From Burkholderia savannae (GTDB lineage Bacteria > Pseudomonadota > Gammaproteobacteria > Burkholderiales > Burkholderiaceae), in the NCBI RefSeq assembly GCF_001524445.2, contig NZ_CP013418.1, positions 806,001 to 870,000 of the forward strand: DNA of 64,000 nucleotides. Direction: 5' to 3'. Under the pieces are notes generated by a model. The model was not told where the DNA came from. It was given only the letters and a program-made list of their open reading frames with translations, and did no database searches. Positions 6,682 to 17,417 of the stretch are shown here, one piece after another. Made by a program: the position numbers and the translations under genes. Position 1 is the first letter of the stretch, and each line of letters opens with the position of its first letter.

Positions 6682-6706
6682 TGACAGACTTGTCACCGCG
6701 CGGTCA
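6682..6706 (+). promoter_or_regulatory. Putative IrlR box 1
   Basis: TGACA-GACT-TGTCA at 6682-6695, then eight bases and TCA at 6704-6706. The same 25-nt pattern recurs before czcC, the DUF4148 gene, the small RNA and the lipoprotein gene. A -10-like hexamer CACACT starts 47 bases from the box start. It lies about 75 bases upstream of the exported-protein start at 6780. Confidence 0.55.
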
Positions 6707-6779
6707 TCGCCACGCACCGCGCCGTCGTCACACTGGCCGGGTCCGCCGTTCCGGCGGCGACCACCAAGCGAGACATTCG

Positions 6780-7070
6780 ATGAAACGAGCAACATCCATG
6801 GCCGTCGCGGCGCTTTTCGCCGTCGCCGCCTCATCCGCGTTCGCGCACGGAATGCCCGAGCGCGTGTTCAAGGAGCGCAAGCCGATTCGCGCCGAAACGC
6901 CGCAGCAGCCGCAACAACCGCAGCGCGACGCGCAGTCGCCCGCCTGTGCGCGCGACTGCGCGGCCGGCGCGAAACTCTCGCAACGCAACGACGGCGCGCC
7001 GGGCGCGAACCCGCGTCCCGTCGATATCGAAACCGCCGCCGGCGCGCATTCGGCCGTCAGCGGCGGCTGA
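6780..7070 (+). CDS. Small exported protein, unknown
   Basis: This 96-residue protein has a clear signal peptide: MKR, then the hydrophobic run MAVAALFAVAASS and a cleavage site after AFA. The mature part is short, charged and Gln/Pro-rich (PQQPQQPQRD) with two cysteines in ACARDCAAGA. No domain is recognised. It precedes the czcCBA-irlRS operon on the same strand and carries the same box in front, so a periplasmic role in metal binding or sensing is a reasonable inference but not shown. ATG 6780 follows an AAGCGAGA stretch. Confidence 0.7.
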   Translation: MKRATSMAVAALFAVAASSAFAHGMPERVFKERKPIRAETPQQPQQPQRDAQSPACARDCAAGAKLSQRNDGAPGANPRPVDIETAAGAHSAVSGG

Positions 7071-7106
7071 GCGGTCGAGCGACTGAGCGGCGATCCGGCG
7101 TCACTG

Positions 7107-7186
7107 CATTACGGCATCACGGCATTACGGCATTACGGCGTCACGGCGTCACGGCGTCACGGCGTCACGGCGTCACGGCGTCACGG
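7107..7186 (+). repeat. 8-bp tandem repeat, 10 units
   Basis: Four degenerate units (CATTACGG/CATCACGG) run straight into six perfect copies of CGTCACGG at 7139-7186. The array lies between the small exported-protein gene and the czcC promoter. Eight-base units do not preserve reading frame, but no gene is present here. Confidence 0.9.
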
Positions 7187-7365
7187 CGTTCGACTCCAGC
7201 GCGCGTCCGCGCGCCGTCGCGACACATCCGCCATGTCCGGCTCGGCAGATGCGTTCCACCGCATCTGCCGCATCTGCCGCATCGGCCCTCGACACGCACT
7301 CCGCACTCCGCACTCCGCACGCCGACAAACCCCGCCGCACCGATCGCCCCCCTCCCGCGCGAACG

Positions 7366-7390
7366 TGACAAAAATGTCATGTTCGCCTCA
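7366..7390 (+). promoter_or_regulatory. Putative IrlR box 2 and czcC promoter
   Basis: TGACA-AAAA-TGTCA at 7366-7379, eight bases, then TCA at 7388-7390. TCATGTT recurs 11 bases on (at 7377 and 7388), the direct-repeat spacing typical of OmpR-family regulators. TAGCAT at 7414-7419 lies 48 bases from the box start and can serve as the -10. The czcC ATG is at 7450. Confidence 0.6.
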
Positions 7391-7449
7391 TGTTTGCATT
7401 GCGGCACGCCCCGTAGCATCGATCGCGTTTCACCCAAACTCGATCACCC

Positions 7450-8817
7450 ATGCCCAAGCGTATCTTCGCCGCACTCGTGTCGGCCGCGATCGCGGCGTCG
7501 GCGGTGCAGGCGCAAGCGCAGTCCGCACCGCCCGCCGTCGCGCCCGGCCGGCCGGCCGCCATGCCCGCCGACGCCGGCGCGCCTTCCGCGCCGACGCCGC
7601 CCGCGTCCACCGCCGAGTCCGCCGCCGCCCCGCCCGCGCTGTCGCTCGACGACGCGCTGAACCTCGCCGCGGCGAACAACCCGCTGCTCAAGAGCGCGCA
7701 ATCCGACGCCGATGCGTCCGTCGGCGCGCTCGTCCAGGCGGGCGCGCGGCCGAATCCAAGCGTGTCGCTCCTGCAGGAAGGCTTCGAGCGGCAGGAGCGG
7801 ACGACGACCGGCCTCGTCAACCAGACGATCGAGCTGGGCGGCAAGCGGCGCTCGCGCGTCGACGCCGCATCGTACGGCCGCGAGTTCGCGCTCGCGTCGC
7901 TCGACGGCCGCGCGAGCGCGCTGCGCGCCGATGTGACGAGCGCGTTCTACGGCCTGCTCGCCGCGCAGCGTCAGTTGCAGGTCGCCGAGGAATCCGCGGC
8001 GATCGCCGCGCGCTCGGCCGACATGGCGGACAAGCGCGCGCGAGCCGGCAAGGTGTCGCCCGTCGAGGCGACGAAGGCGCGCGTCGCGCAGACGGCCGCG
8101 CAGATCGAGCTGTCGAACGCGCAGACGCGCGTGACGGCGGCGCTCGCGCGGCTCGCCAACGTGACGGGCAGCGCCCTCGTGCGCGAGCGCGCCGCGTCGG
8201 GCGACCTCGATGCGCTGCCCACCGTCGAGCCGTTGCCGCAATTGCTCGGACGGCTCGACGACGCGCCGCTCTCTCGCGCGGCGAAGGCCGCCATGCTGCG
8301 CACGAACGCGCAGATCGCGATCGAGCGCGCGAAGCGCGTGCCGGACATCACCGTGAGCGCGGGCGTCAAGCGCGTCGTCACGGGCGGCGCGCCGGACAAT
8401 CAAGCAGTCGTCGGCATATCCATTCCGCTGCCGCTGTTCGATACGAACAAGGGCGCGATTCTCGAAGCGGTCCACAAGGCCGCGAAGGCGAGCGCCGATT
8501 TCGACGCCGAGCGCGCGCGCCTGCGGCTCGATCTCACGCAGGCCTACGCGAACTTCGAGCGCTCGACGAACGAAGCGCGGCGGCTGAAGGCCGACGTGCT
8601 GCCGGCCGCGCGGCAATCGCTCGACGCGATGTCGCGCGGCTACCAGCTCGGCAAGTTCAGCTTCCTCGACGTGCTCGACGCACAGCGCACGCTGTTCGAC
8701 GCGCAGTCGCGCTACGTGCTGGCGCTCGCCGACGCGCACCAGTCGTACGCGGACATCGATCGCCTCGTCGGCGCGCCGTCGCGCGACGCGTCCCGCCCCC
8801 TCGCCCAACTTCGCTGA
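7450..8817 (+). CDS. czcC: CzcC-type outer-membrane efflux protein
   Basis: A 455-residue TolC/OEP-family protein with a signal peptide (cleaved near VQAQA) and an Ala/Pro-rich linker to about residue 65. It then has the two repeated efflux-protein halves. In the first, SLDDALNLAAANNPLLKSA opens the coiled-coil hairpin. In the second, RLRLDLTQAYANFERS and the LGKFSFLDVLDAQRTLFDA motif are visible. It forms the outer-membrane channel of the CzcCBA heavy-metal efflux complex. It is followed 24 bases later by czcB. The operon promoter with its box lies directly upstream. Confidence 0.88.
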   Translation: MPKRIFAALVSAAIAASAVQAQAQSAPPAVAPGRPAAMPADAGAPSAPTPPASTAESAAAPPALSLDDALNLAAANNPLLKSAQSDADASVGALVQAGARPNPSVSLLQEGFERQERTTTGLVNQTIELGGKRRSRVDAASYGREFALASLDGRASALRADVTSAFYGLLAAQRQLQVAEESAAIAARSADMADKRARAGKVSPVEATKARVAQTAAQIELSNAQTRVTAALARLANVTGSALVRERAASGDLDALPTVEPLPQLLGRLDDAPLSRAAKAAMLRTNAQIAIERAKRVPDITVSAGVKRVVTGGAPDNQAVVGISIPLPLFDTNKGAILEAVHKAAKASADFDAERARLRLDLTQAYANFERSTNEARRLKADVLPAARQSLDAMSRGYQLGKFSFLDVLDAQRTLFDAQSRYVLALADAHQSYADIDRLVGAPSRDASRPLAQLR

Positions 8818-8841
8818 ACCCATTTCACTGAAGAACTCGCC

Positions 8842-13609
<4,768 letters not shown>

Positions 13610-13615
13610 AACCAG

Positions 13616-14299
13616 ATGCGAATACTGATAGTGGAAGACGAGCCGAAGACGGGCATGTATCTGCGCAAGGGGCTGACCGAAGCGGGCTTCATCGCGGACT
13701 GGGTCGATGACGGCGTGACGGGCCTGCATCAGGCCGAAACCGAGGAGTACGACCTGATCATCCTCGACGTGATGCTGCCGGGCCACGACGGCTGGACCGT
13801 GCTCGAGCGGCTGCGCCGCGAGCACTCGACGCCCGTGCTGTTCCTCACCGCGCGCGACGACGTCGGCGACCGCGTGAAGGGGCTCGAGCTGGGCGCCGAC
13901 GATTACGTCGTCAAGCCGTTCGATTTCGTCGAGCTCGTCGCGCGCGTGCGCTCGATCCTGCGCCGCGGGCAGGGGCGCGAATCGACGATCCTCAAGATCG
14001 CCGATCTCGAGCTCGACCTCACGCGGCGCAAGGCGACCCGCCAGGGCGACGTCGTGCTGCTGACCGCGAAGGAATTCGCGCTGCTGTGGCTGTTGATGCG
14101 CCGCGAAGGCGAGATCCTGCCCCGTGCGACGATCGCGTCGCAGGTGTGGGACATGAATTTCAACAGCGACACGAACGTCGTCGACGCGGCGATCCGCCGG
14201 CTGCGCTCGAAAATCGACGACGCATACGAGCCCAAGCTGATCCATACGGTGCGCGGGATGGGCTACGTGCTCGAAGTGCGGAGCGCGCCGAGCCGATGA
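13616..14299 (+). CDS. irlR: IrlR, OmpR-family response regulator
   Basis: A 227-residue response regulator of the CopR/CzcR branch. The receiver domain has the acidic pair in VEDEP, the phospho-acceptor D51 in [10 protein letters not shown], and K100 in VVKPFD. The C-terminal winged helix shows [18 protein letters not shown] and the recognition region [15 protein letters not shown]. It matches the irlR product of B. pseudomallei, first found as part of a locus affecting invasion of epithelial cells and resistance to heavy metals. It starts six bases after czcA and overlaps irlS (ATGA). It is the obvious candidate to bind the boxes described around this cluster. Confidence 0.9.
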
Positions 14300-15687
14300 T
14301 CAAGCGCCTGTTGCCCCGTACGCTGCGCGCGCGCCTGACGGCGCTCATCATCCTGTCGACCGCGGCGACGCTCGCGCTGAGCGGCATCGCGCTCTACAGC
14401 GCGCTGCACAATCGGCTGGCCGGCATGTCGTCGTACGAAATGTCGGCGACGCTCGCGGCGATGCGCACGCATCTCGTGAACGTGCGAAGCGTCGACGAAA
14501 TTCCGCGCAAGTCGGATCTGTGGATCGATCAGCTGCACGGCCATCAGAATCTGGATCTGGCGATCTACGGCGCAGACGGTCGGATGCTGTTCGCGACGCG
14601 CGGCTTCGTCGCGACGCAGCCCGCGCTCGGCGCGCCGCAAGCGCGCGTGCCGGCGAGCGCGACGCACGCCGGCACGACTTACAGCTATCTCGCGGGCGAC
14701 GCGCCGCTTCGCGACGCCAACCGGACGGCGCGCATCGTCGTCCAGTACGACGGCAGGAACGATCACGCGCTGCTGCGCGCGTATGCGTACACGGTGGTGG
14801 TGATCGAGGTGCTCGCCGTCGCGCTGACCGCGGCGCTCGCGTACGGCATCGCGATGCTCGGCCTGAGCCCGCTGCGCCGGCTCGTCTCGCGCGCCGAGCA
14901 GATGTCGTCGAGCCGGCTCGCGCATCCGCTGCCGGAGCTCCACACGTCGGGCGAGCTCAAGGAGATGGAGCATGCGTTCAACGGCATGCTCAAGCGGCTC
15001 GACGAATCGTTCGTACGCCTGAGCCAGTTCTCGTCGAATCTCGCGCACGACATGCGCACGCCGCTCACGAATCTGCTCGCCGAAGCGCAGGTCGCGCTAT
15101 CGAAGCCGCGCACGGCCGACGAATATCGCGACGTGATCGAATCGAGCATCGACGAATATCAGCGCCTGTCGCGGATGATCGAGGACATGCTGTTCCTCGC
15201 GCGCTCGGACAACGCCGAGAGCCATCTGGCGATCCGCACGCTCGACGCGGCCGCGGAGGCCGAGCGCGTCGCCGGCTACTACGAGCCGATGGCGGAGGAC
15301 GCGGAGGTGAATATCGTCGTGCGCGGGCAAGCGGCCGTGCAGGCGGACGCGCTCCTCTATCACCGCGCGCTCAGCAACCTGATCAGCAATGCGCTCAATC
15401 ACGCGCCGCGCGGCTCGACGATCACGATCGAATGCCGGCAGGCGGGCGGTGCGACGACGATCAGCGTTTCGGATACGGGCCGCGGGATCGAGCCGCAGCA
15501 TCGCGAGCGGATCTTCGAGCGGTTCTACCGCGTCGATCCGGCGCGGCACAATTCGGCGTCGGGCACGGGGCTCGGCCTCGCGATCGTCCGCTCGATCATG
15601 GACAACCACGGCGGCGCGTGCGGCGTCGACAGCGAGCCGCACGTGCGCACCACGTTCTGGCTCACGTTCCCCGCGCACGCGGCCTGA
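14296..15687 (+). CDS. irlS: IrlS, heavy-metal sensor histidine kinase
   Basis: A 463-residue sensor kinase of the CusS/CzcS type. TM1 lies at about residues 14-36, with a periplasmic sensor domain of about 125 residues, TM2 at about 165-188, and HAMP to about 241. The H-box is [15 protein letters not shown] (phosphorylated H251). N-box [12 protein letters not shown]1 DTGRGIEP and G2 GTGLGLAIV are all intact. The periplasmic part contains two His in LHGHQN but no obvious metal-binding cluster. The protein is encoded immediately after its regulator, last in the czc operon, and is followed by a hairpin. Confidence 0.9.
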
Positions 15688-15776
15688 CCGGCTGCGTCGC
15701 GCGACGCGGCGCAGCGCGCGGCCCCTGCGGCCCCCACTTCGGCCCCTACGGCCGCTATCGGGTGCGCGGGGTGCGT

Positions 15777-15795
15777 GGCCCGCGCGACGCGGGCC
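15777..15795. terminator. Hairpin between irlS and the convergent DUF4148 gene
   Basis: A perfect 8-bp stem GGCCCGCG / CGCGGGCC with loop CGA. It has no T-tract and is placed to end both convergent transcripts. Confidence 0.5.
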
Positions 15796-15819
15796 GCGCA
15801 CGCGTCGATGGTCCGCGCA

Positions 15820-16092
15820 TCAGCGCGCAACCGTGCGGTCATGCTGATCGAGCGCCACGTTCGTCTTGCCGCCGTGAACCGAGATCGCATGCAACTGCTT
15901 GTTGCGCTCGACGAGCGCCGGGCTCGGCGGATAGTCGTTCTTCCCCGCGGGCACGATGCCTTCGTGCTGCGCGCGGATCAGCTCCTGCCGGACTTCGGCG
16001 CGCGTCTTGCCTTGCGCGAATGCGGCGGGCGCGACGGCCAGCGTCGTCAGTGCCGCGGCGGCGGCCCATGTCATGAGTTTTGTCGTGTTCAT
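15820..16092 (-). CDS. DUF4148 exported protein
   Basis: A 90-residue protein with a signal peptide (MNTTKLMTW, then an Ala-rich core, cleavage after AFAQG). The mature domain is typical of DUF4148, a family abundant in Burkholderia: TRAEVRQELIRAQHEGIVPAGKNDYPPS. These small periplasmic proteins often accompany metal or stress two-component systems; function is unknown. A copy of the putative IrlR box lies 76-100 bases upstream, with a -10-like CAAAGT at the same spacing as in the czc promoter. Confidence 0.85.
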   Translation of the reverse strand: MNTTKLMTWAAAAALTTLAVAPAAFAQGKTRAEVRQELIRAQHEGIVPAGKNDYPPSPALVERNKQLHAISVHGGKTNVALDQHDRTVAR

Positions 16093-16167
16093 CGTTCGTT
16101 CTCCATCGAGTTGATCACTGTCGTGCGACAGTAGCCTCCACTTTGAACGCCGAACGGTACGCGGCCA

Positions 16168-16192
16168 TGAGCGCGAGATGACAAATTCGTCA
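16168..16192 (-). promoter_or_regulatory. Putative IrlR box 3
   Basis: Reading the minus strand: TGACG-AATT-TGTCA (16192-16179), eight bases, then TCA (16170-16168). It has one mismatch in the first half-site. CAAAGT begins 47 bases from the box start. The downstream gene is the DUF4148 protein. Confidence 0.55.
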
Positions 16193-16234
16193 TCCGCGCC
16201 GTGCTCGGAATCGAGCGTGCGCGACGCGCGCGCA

Positions 16235-16259
16235 TGACGAAAATTTCACGTTCGCGTCA
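16235..16259 (+). promoter_or_regulatory. Putative IrlR box 4, in front of the candidate small RNA
   Basis: TGACG-AAAA-TTTCA at 16235-16248, then CGTTCGCG and TCA at 16257-16259. The segment aligns closely with the czcC box. TAGCAT at 16282-16287 is 47 bases from the box start, the same hexamer as in the czc promoter. Confidence 0.55.
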
Positions 16260-16293
16260 GCGTGGCGCTGTGTCGATCCTTTAGCATCTGTAT

Positions 16294-16424
16294 TCCAAGA
16301 TCGCCGATCAGACGAGATTGGACCGAGGCGCTTGGTTCCCCCCCTCGAGCACGCGAGGCGCATTGGCACCAGCAGGTGCCGTCGCACTTATGCCGGACAG
16401 TCTCCCCCTGTCCGGCATTTTTTT
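16294..16424 (+). ncRNA. Candidate small RNA with intrinsic terminator
   Basis: Downstream of box 4 and its TAGCAT -10, about 130 bases lack a convincing reading frame but fold into three successive hairpins. They are CCTCG/CGAGG at 16343-16358, GGCACC/GGTGCC at 16365-16380, and a terminator stem of 11 perfect pairs at 16390-16418 followed by seven T. The terminator is the best intrinsic one in the window and there is no gene immediately upstream that needs it. The 5' end is inferred from the -10 position. It could instead be an attenuated leader of the lipoprotein gene at 16841. Confidence 0.55.
16390..16424 (+). terminator. Rho-independent terminator
   Basis: ATGCCGGACAG / CTGTCCGGCAT, 11 perfect base pairs with a 7-base loop (TCTCCCC), then a run of seven T at 16418-16424. 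Confidence 0.85.
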
Positions 16425-16549
16425 GCGCGCACACGTGGCAAGGGCGCGGCTTGCGGATGCGCGCCGCGCGTGTCGATCGGCGGCGACGCGAAGCGATCGG
16501 CGGCGCTTTCGCTTTCATGTTCACTTGCGTTCGCGTTTGCGCTTGCGTC

Positions 16550-16592
16550 TTCGGCGAAGGCCCGGCGTCGCGTTCGCCTGGCCTTCGCCGAA
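16550..16592. repeat. Perfect 13-bp inverted repeat
   Basis: TTCGGCGAAGGCC at 16550-16562 and its complement GGCCTTCGCCGAA at 16580-16592, separated by 17 bases. It lies between the candidate small RNA and the lipoprotein promoter. The rest of 16425-16658 holds no recognisable gene. Confidence 0.7.
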
Positions 16593-16658
16593 AGCGCTTT
16601 GCTTGGTTCTCCGATGCATCCGCATCGCTCACGTCGAACGCGTCTCGCCTCGCTTCGC

Positions 16659-16683
16659 CGACAACTTTGTCATGTTCGGATCA
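16659..16683 (+). promoter_or_regulatory. Putative IrlR box 5
   Basis: CGACA-ACTT-TGTCA at 16659-16672, then TGTTCGGA and TCA at 16681-16683. TCATGTTC / TCACGTCC form the 11-base direct repeat. CAACAT starts 47 bases from the box start. The next gene is the small lipoprotein at 16841. Confidence 0.55.
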
Positions 16684-16840
16684 CGTCCGCGCAGCGTCGC
16701 CCGCGCAACATGTGAGCACATCGAACGACGCGCTCCGCATCCGGCGATTCGCGCACCCGGCGGCCCGAACCGGCGCCGACGCGATCGCCTCGCAGCGAGC
16801 GCCGAATTCGAATCGAACGACATACGACAAGAGGAACATC

Positions 16841-17089
16841 ATGAAAGCGCCGATCATCGCAGTCGCGTTCGGCATCGCGCTGGCAGCCTGCGCCCCGCTT
16901 CGCCAGGATCTCCGGTCCGGCGAAGCGGGGCCATCCGTCGCATCGTCGAAGCCCGGCGACGACGGCGGCGTGAAACGCGAATCGCGACGCCCGGCGAACG
17001 AGGTCGTCGACTACGCCGGACGCCCGTGCGTCAATCAAACCCTGTACGTGAAGATGCATCCGTGCATCTTTCCGCGGTTGCAGCGCTGA
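16841..17089 (+). CDS. Small lipoprotein, unknown
   Basis: An 82-residue protein with a lipoprotein signal: MKAPIIAVAFGIALAAC, with lipobox LAAC and lipidated Cys17. The mature part is basic and ends in YAGRPCVNQTLYVKMHPCIFPRLQR, carrying two cysteines. No family is recognised. GAGGAAC is the SD. The preceding box suggests co-regulation with czc-irl. The location would be the periplasmic face of a membrane. Confidence 0.7.
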   Translation: MKAPIIAVAFGIALAACAPLRQDLRSGEAGPSVASSKPGDDGGVKRESRRPANEVVDYAGRPCVNQTLYVKMHPCIFPRLQR

Positions 17090-17417
17090 ACCGCCTGGCG
17101 CGTGCGGCGTACCGCACCGCACGGCGCGTCGCCGCACGCCGTCGCGAGCCGATGCACGAAGCGATGCGCTGGGCGACCGCCGCGCCGCGCGCCCATCCGA
17201 CGTCGCGCCGCGCGAACCGCCCGCGCGCGGCTTCTCCCCGATCTCCGGCCTCGAACCACGGCCGCTTCCCCGCTCCCCCTCGCTTGCCGCCCGGCCGCGT
17301 CGATTGCTTATCGCCTTGCGCTTCATAACGAATCGCAAACTGCTTCTTTGTGTTTTGCGGGCCTGCTTCGTATAACTGCGACTTCCCGTCCGAACCGCCC
17401 CGACCGAAGAGCATCCC

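What the first reader, a model, noticed from the sequence alone, without database searches (positions are those of the whole stretch)
6682..16683. Five copies of one 25-nt box suggest a local IrlR metal regulon
TGACR-N4-TKTCA-N8-TCA occurs at 6682, 7366, 16192 (minus), 16235 and 16659, allowing one or two mismatches per site. All lie before genes of the czc-irl block: a small exported protein, czcCBA-irlRS, a DUF4148 protein, a candidate small RNA and a lipoprotein. In each case TCA repeats 11 bases on, the spacing of OmpR-family regulators. An A-N3-T hexamer follows 47-48 bases from the box start; it is TAGCAT in two of them. I know of no description of this site or regulon.
Basis: partly seen in the sequence, partly recalled or inferred. 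Interest (0 to 1): 0.78.

Follow-up and report, generated by a model that had tools for sequence, protein, structure and literature searches.

The report
Metal-sensor DNA box driving small RNA
Five copies of one DNA switch sequence sit in front of metal-efflux genes, small exported proteins and a previously unremarked small RNA, and much of this layout recurs in related bacteria; the switch is of a known type, but the small RNA appears to be new.

Summary
Four sites match the stated pattern exactly, the fifth with one mismatch. They are the only exact matches in the 7.43 Mb genome. A relaxed form gives five; the fifth precedes the DUF4148 gene beside the paralogous irlR2S2. All five window sites have A-N3-T 47-48 bases from the box start.

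The site is of a known kind: an inverted repeat plus promoter-proximal direct repeat, like the Cupriavidus AgrR box (PMC7380067). IrlR belongs to the matching regulator family.

The box with its -10 stands before czcC in 42 of 44 examined relatives. The fourth box precedes a predicted ~130-nt terminator-ended RNA. A covariance model of that RNA, box excluded, gave 46 strong hits in 44 of 65 genus genomes; 45 carry the box upstream, against 0 of 19 weak hits. RNA and irlS co-occur: both in 43 genomes, one alone in 2, neither in 20.

Best reading: IrlR-family regulators activate metal efflux, DUF4148 proteins, a lipoprotein and a Burkholderia-specific sRNA. Binding, metal response of the newly assigned units, and RNA targets are untested here.

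The parts
6682..6706 (+). box 1, exact match
   Evidence: also in G017; no box-like match found in the 500 bases searched upstream in L009 and L010
6729..6734 (+). CACACT, -10-like, offset 47
   Evidence: CACACT or near variants at the same spacing in positional relatives
6780..7070 (+). small exported protein, no Pfam match; diverged relative of a DUF4148 protein
7366..7390 (+). box 2, exact match, before czcCBA-irlRS
7414..7419 (+). TAGCAT, -10-like, offset 48
   Evidence: TAGCAT in 40 of 42 relatives with a site
7450..8817 (+). czcC-like outer-membrane efflux protein (OEP, PF02321)
8842..10302 (+). czcB-like adaptor
   Evidence: TIGR00999 below its cut-off, TIGR01730 above
10376..13609 (+). 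czcA-like heavy-metal RND pump
   Evidence: TIGR00914, 1705 bits, cut-off 701
13616..14299 (+). irlR, OmpR-family heavy-metal response regulator
   Evidence: (TIGR01387, 340 bits, cut-off 279)
14296..15687 (+). irlS, heavy-metal sensor kinase
   Evidence: TIGR01386, 575 bits, cut-off 293
15820..16092 (-). DUF4148 exported protein
   Evidence: PF13663
16140..16145 (-). CAAAGT, -10-like, offset 47
16168..16192 (-). box 3, exact match, before DUF4148 gene
16235..16259 (+). box 4, exact match, before the RNA
16282..16287 (+). TAGCAT, -10-like, offset 47
16295..16424 (+). predicted small RNA, about 130 nt; ends inferred from -10 and terminator, not mapped
16347..16357 (+). conserved core of the RNA, GAGCACGCGAG; CACGC is present in all 27 aligned sequences
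16390..16424 (+). intrinsic terminator (11-pair stem, T run)
16659..16683 (+). box 5, one mismatch, before lipoprotein gene
   Evidence: like sites in L009, L010 and visible in L061
16706..16711 (+). CAACAT, -10-like, offset 47
16841..17089 (+). small predicted lipoprotein, no Pfam match, conserved C-N-x2-LYV-x2-HPC motif

Best explanation
The 25-base box is the operator of IrlR-type (CopR/CusR/CzcR/AgrR-like) response regulators. A dimer binds the inverted repeat TGACR-N6-TCA, and the TCA one helical turn on serves as an extra direct half-site next to the -35 position. With a -10 element 47-48 bases from the box start and no recognisable -35, the bound regulator recruits RNA polymerase as a class II activator. 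Zinc or cadmium sensed by IrlS would switch on czcCBA-irlRS (positive feedback), DUF4148 proteins, a lipoprotein and a small RNA. The RNA is most likely a trans-acting base-pairing regulator; its targets are unknown. Shown by computation: the sites, their specificity, conserved spacing, the RNA family and its link to the box. Inferred: binding, metal response of the newly assigned units, class II activation, RNA function.
For: Genome-wide specificity: exact pattern 4 of 4 in this block; relaxed pattern 5 sites with reversed control 0, the fifth beside irlR2S2 and before a DUF4148 gene with CAAAAT at offset 47. Conservation: czcC site in 42 of 44 loci (38 exact), A-N3-T in 42 of 42, TAGCAT in 40; among 39 single-candidate loci the third TCA in 36 and A-N3-T at offset 47 in 39, against a mean of 0.20 and at most 3 for TCA at other offsets. 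DUF4148 site in 37 of 44 (32 exact), A-N3-T in 36 of 37; in 28 single-candidate loci TCA in 28 and A-N3-T at 47 in 28. Regulator: IrlR above the cut-off of TIGR01387; its DNA-binding domain is closest among solved structures to PcoR (29 of 36 residues alike in the recognition region). RNA: 46 strong hits in 44 of 65 genomes, 45 boxed; of 19 cores not identical to a training core in the first 60 bases 18 are boxed; 0 of 19 weak hits boxed. Co-occurrence with irlS 43/1/1/20, Fisher p 1.5e-14. Pair changes: 9 of 21 pairs with changes on both sides, covariation 0.150 against 0.089 in shuffles (0 of 500) and at most 0.072 for slid partners. No sigma-70 consensus promoter in 15700-17200. Printed evidence seen: the operon BPSS1039-BPSS1043 of B. 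pseudomallei is expressed upon zinc exposure (PMC3772027, passage).
Against: No binding or expression data for these sites. At two mismatches the pattern is near background genome-wide. Other one-mismatch places are not obviously metal promoters, and the one 393 bases before irlR2 has no A-N3-T at the expected place. Box 1 was not found upstream of the related protein in L009 and L010. G002 keeps boxes and RNA without irlRS, so another regulator may act there. G014 has irlRS and boxes but no RNA hit. The RNA training set was chosen because of the box, and 25 of the 44 other strong-hit cores are identical to training cores over 60 bases, so the box count is partly circular. Without its terminator the window RNA is not unusually stable (z -1.0), and the alignment behind one search was fitted to a model. 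The RNA's ends are not mapped.
Confidence: 0.78

Rival explanations
1. The RNA is not a free regulator but a 5' leader or attenuator of the lipoprotein gene, whose terminator meters read-through.
For: In L012 and L032 the terminator hairpin lies just before the lipoprotein reading frame with no second box between.
Against: In the window, L009 and L010 the lipoprotein has its own box downstream of the terminator. In the 20 examined loci of the other arrangement (L016-L052 and L063) the RNA lies on its own box; in those where the lipoprotein was placed, such as L019, it is on the opposite strand and convergent with it.
Confidence: 0.12
2. The box is read mainly by another response regulator of the same family (IrlR2, or a CopR/CusR-like paralogue), or by several in common, rather than by IrlR.
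For: IrlR2 is 73% identical and its locus has a box; G002 keeps boxes and RNA without irlRS; boxes stand before a 62% paralogue's own gene in L164 and L167. In Pseudomonas three regulators share one palindrome (PMC11195947, passages).
Against: In the window genome the four exact sites surround irlRS, and the RNA tracks irlS in 43 of 44 genomes.
Confidence: 0.3
3. The box is a chance or compositional repeat without regulatory meaning.
For: At two mismatches counts approach the reversed control.
Against: Exact and relaxed counts, reversed controls and conservation at fixed spacing across loci.
Confidence: 0.02

Closest known systems
AgrR box of Cupriavidus metallidurans (PMC7380067)
   Same: Inverted repeat with 4-base spacer, consensus ATKACANNNNTGTMAT, plus an in-phase direct half-site on the promoter side; position fits a class II activator; the regulator is of the same heavy-metal OmpR subfamily.
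   Different: Silver and copper context; consensus ATKACA rather than TGACR; no DUF4148 gene or small RNA among the targets in the passages seen.
CopR/CusR/CzcR sites of Pseudomonas (PMC11195947) and PcoR/CopR sites
   Same: Palindromic operators shared by related regulators beside metal genes; IrlR's DNA-binding domain is closest to PcoR among solved structures.
   Different: ATTCATnnATGTAAT-type half-sites with shorter spacing in Pseudomonas; different gene content.
B. pseudomallei IrlRS (BPSS1039-BPSS1043) and IrlR2S2-DUF4148 (PMC7549894, PMC13037405, PMC3772027)
   Same: Same gene order; zinc-expressed operon; DUF4148 genes beside both regulator pairs.
   Different: PMC7549894 says the DUF4148 neighbourhood 'may be coincidental'; the shared promoter box found here argues that it is not. 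No operator or small RNA is described in the passages seen.
Rfam RF02837 (anti-hemB) and RF02278 (double-hairpin, 'toxic' small RNAs)
   Same: Short Burkholderia or betaproteobacterial RNAs with hairpins and a similar terminator.
   Different: Matches of 21-25 bits (RF02837) and 17 bits (RF02278), far below gathering scores of 49.5 and 50; the window copy gives no match up to E 1.

Membership tests
CopR/CusR/AgrR-type heavy-metal box | Inverted repeat of TGAC/TKAC-type half-sites with 4-base spacer | tested here: met
   at least four of five window sites exact; consensus compared with PMC7380067 section 18
CopR/CusR/AgrR-type heavy-metal box | In-phase direct half-site on the promoter side (in some operators) | tested here: met
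   TCA 11 bases on in all five; 36 of 39 and 28 of 28 relatives
CopR/CusR/AgrR-type heavy-metal box | Position fitting class II activation (box abutting -35, fixed -10) | tested here: met
   A-N3-T at offset 47-48; transcription starts not mapped
CopR/CusR/AgrR-type heavy-metal box | Bound by a regulator of that subfamily | not testable with these tools
   IrlR is in TIGR01387, but binding was not measured
Heavy-metal response regulator (TIGR01387) | Score above curated cut-off | tested here: met
   IrlR 340.5 bits, cut-off 279.2
Rfam RF02837 / RF02278 | Score above gathering threshold | tested here: not met
Trans-acting base-pairing small RNA | Own promoter and intrinsic terminator, no conserved reading frame | tested here: met
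   of 9 sequences checked, 3 have some frame of 8 or more codons and these are not alike
Trans-acting base-pairing small RNA | Discrete transcript that pairs with target mRNAs, usually with Hfq | not tested
   No expression data; targets not predicted
DUF4148 (PF13663) | Score above Pfam cut-off | tested here: met
   15820-16092 and the gene beside irlR2S2; the 6780-7070 protein does not match Pfam

The most novel reading that the evidence does not exclude
A CzcR-type metal-efflux regulon of Burkholderia carries its own dedicated small RNA family, moved with its box between two positions and strands, that couples zinc or cadmium sensing to post-transcriptional shut-down of envelope or metal-uptake genes, together with DUF4148 proteins as a periplasmic arm.
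Probability: 0.4. Interest if true: 0.72.

Novelty: new variant of a known kind. Interest (0 to 1): 0.58.

Why it matters
It gives a sequence rule for a metal regulon in a genus with many uncharacterised two-component systems and ties DUF4148 proteins, one of them a reported virulence factor (PMC7549894), to irl-type regulators by a shared promoter. It also supplies a candidate metal-regulated small RNA: work on P. aeruginosa suspected a zinc-regulated sRNA behind Hfq-dependent porin repression and knew none (PMC5083921, passages).

Tried and rejected
Chance repeat: rejected by genome-wide counts and conservation. RNA as coding: no frame of 8 or more codons in 6 of 9 sequences; the other three differ. 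Membership in Rfam families: below thresholds. Sites with one mismatch elsewhere in the genome: seven such listed places include box 5 and the irlR2S2 DUF4148 site; the others showed no clear box promoter in the printed stretches, and I did not annotate all their genes. RNA outside the genus: in 150 family genomes the only hits outside the genus were two weak, unboxed ones, with at most 32 candidates scored per genome. G009 keeps an RNA-type box promoter but the sequence after it did not look like the RNA. Prior report of the RNA: PMC10987360 and PMC10175445 hold none of the metal or locus terms searched; PMC5688073 Table 1 lists 15 candidate RNAs by coordinates that I could not place, and its supplements were not seen; PMC4035088 Table 2 lists B. 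thailandensis RNAs, such as BTH_s35 (133 nt), that I could not place, so earlier detection is not excluded. Searches behind 'not in print': (open-licence PMC only). sRNA target prediction was not attempted.
Full report
Observation. The pattern TGACR-N4-TKTCA-N8-TCA occurs exactly at 6682, 7366, 16168-16192 (minus) and 16235 and with one mismatch at 16659. In the whole genome it has 4 exact matches, all here, and 11 places with up to one mismatch, 5 of them here; with two mismatches it is near the reversed control, 120 against 92. About 0.12 exact matches are expected from base composition. Dropping the TK requirement gives five sites and none for the reversed control: the four above and one at C2:2550810 (minus), before a DUF4148 gene (L067:4392-4733) next to irlR2-irlS2, with CAAAAT at offset 47. 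So the pattern is rare and tied to irl-type loci in this genome.

Promoter anatomy. All five window sites have A-N3-T at offset 47 or 48, TAGCAT in two. Fifty-one loci encoding an IrlS relative were found in named genomes. For the promoter comparison I used 44 (L009-L058 without L033, L044, L054, L055, L057, L058, dropped before the count as short or distant). The czcC site is present with up to one mismatch in 42 of 44 (38 exact), with A-N3-T at the right place in 42 and TAGCAT in 40; the DUF4148 site in 37 of 44 (32 exact), A-N3-T in 36. Some one-mismatch DUF4148 matches may be spurious. Judged by the inverted repeat alone, among loci with a single candidate, the third TCA is there in 36 of 39 (czcC) and 28 of 28 (DUF4148), and A-N3-T stands at exactly 47 in 39 of 39 and 28 of 28; TCA at other offsets averages 0.20 (at most 3) and 0.57 (at most 15). 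In the three dropped Thiobacillus loci a perfect box also stands near the match. No sigma-70 consensus promoter was found in 15700-17200. This is the layout of a class II activator.

Regulator. IrlR scores 340.5 bits against TIGR01387 (cut-off 279.2) and IrlS 574.6 against TIGR01386 (292.6). Among solved structures the DNA-binding domain is closest to PcoR (133 bits), alike at 29 of 36 residues in the recognition region; IrlR2 at 28 of 36. AgrR of C. metallidurans binds ATKACANNNNTGTMAT with an additional in-phase direct half-site; changing either element impairs activation (PMC7380067, section 18 read). The box is therefore a new member of that kind of operator, not a new kind.

Genes. Box 1 precedes a small exported protein with no Pfam match. 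At the corresponding place L011, L021, L043, L053 and L056 have a box followed by DUF4148-like proteins, to which the window protein is weakly similar (tblastn E 2e-5 for L011 and 3e-4 for L021), so it is probably a diverged relative. In L009 and L010 a relative of the protein exists but no box was found in the 500 bases searched. Box 3 drives a DUF4148 protein, box 5 a small predicted lipoprotein with a conserved HPC motif, seen in 11 sequences by motif search, one of them a second copy of the window gene.

The RNA. Box 4 is followed by TAGCAT and, about 130 bases on, a strong terminator. Related loci show the same RNA in place (L061, L009, L010, L012, L032) or, in L016-L039 loci of the other type, L050, L052 and L063, behind its own box on the opposite strand. 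CACGC is invariant in all 27 aligned sequences. A model of the 74-position core, box excluded, found 46 hits with E at most 5.1e-5 in 44 of 65 genus genomes; the next best hit had E 0.0066. The box stands upstream in 30 of 30 top hits (perfect, 81-83 bases before the core), in 13 of the next 14 (9 perfect, 4 with one mismatch; L132 not) and in the window and G017, 45 of 46 in all. Since training sequences were chosen for the box this is partly circular; of 19 cores not identical to training over 60 bases, 18 are boxed. None of 19 weak hits is boxed. Scoring 43 genomes with both the RNA and an irlS orthologue (E at most 5.9e-180), one with irlS alone (G014), one with the RNA alone (G002) and 20 with neither gives Fisher p 1.5e-14; in 41 pairs on one contig the median distance is 974 bases. 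Relatedness of the genomes was not corrected for.

Structure. On 45 distinct sequences, 9 of 21 pairs show changes on both sides; the covariation score is 0.150 against 0.089 in shuffles (0 of 500) and at most 0.072 when partners are slid. The alignment was fitted to a model, so this leans towards the structure. Folding z-scores of eight RNAs are -2.7 to -7.3 with the terminator and -0.3 to -4.3 without; the window RNA falls from -3.1 to -1.0. The firm parts are the terminator and the second hairpin.

Against a pure IrlR regulon. G002 keeps the DUF4148, lipoprotein and RNA boxes at a place without czcCBA-irlRS; its best IrlR relative is 65% identical. In 12 genomes the relaxed pattern occurs 1 to 12 times; recurrent extra sites stand before a DUF3331 gene (seen around L160-L163, L168, L169; Pfam tested for L160 only) and before a 62% paralogue's own gene (L164, L167). 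Several regulators probably share the box, as in Pseudomonas (PMC11195947, passages).

Printed evidence. The operon BPSS1039-BPSS1043 of B. pseudomallei is expressed upon zinc exposure (PMC3772027, passage). PMC7549894 (abstract and passages) notes DUF4148 genes beside both irl pairs and calls this possibly coincidental; the shared box argues otherwise. PMC13037405 (passages) finds no change in metal MICs in an irlR2 mutant, so the irlR2 branch may not be metal-responsive. PMC5083921 (passages) suspects but does not know a zinc-regulated sRNA in P. aeruginosa. I found no description of this box or RNA in the ten literature searches made, which cover open-licence PMC papers only; two published RNA lists could not be matched by place.

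Verdict. A real, specific, conserved operator of a known type, with two new points: DUF4148 genes as recurrent members and a Burkholderia small RNA family under the same box. The species of the window is not given; gene order suggests the B. pseudomallei group (inferred), so bench tests with its own genes are referred.

Noticed in passing
window 7096-7189: Tandem array of about 11.8 copies of CGGCGTCA between the small exported gene and czcC, upstream of box 2; a possible length-variable element.
   Followed up: no
L067:4811 (minus), G000:C2:2550810: Box with CAAAAT at offset 47 before the DUF4148 gene next to irlR2S2, the place of the reported virulence factor BPSS1996 in B. pseudomallei (PMC7549894).
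   Followed up: yes
L160-L163, L168, L169: In several sampled genomes a box precedes a small protein; the one in L160 matches DUF3331 (PF11811).
   Followed up: partly
L164:3703 (minus), L167:3567: Box about 75-86 bases before the gene of a 62% IrlR paralogue, suggesting autoregulation by the same kind of site.
   Followed up: no
L165:3273: RNA-type box promoter kept in G009 although no RNA follows it; possibly a relic.
   Followed up: partly
L054, L055, L058 at 9232 (minus): Perfect boxes near IrlS relatives in Thiobacillus, outside the family.
   Followed up: no
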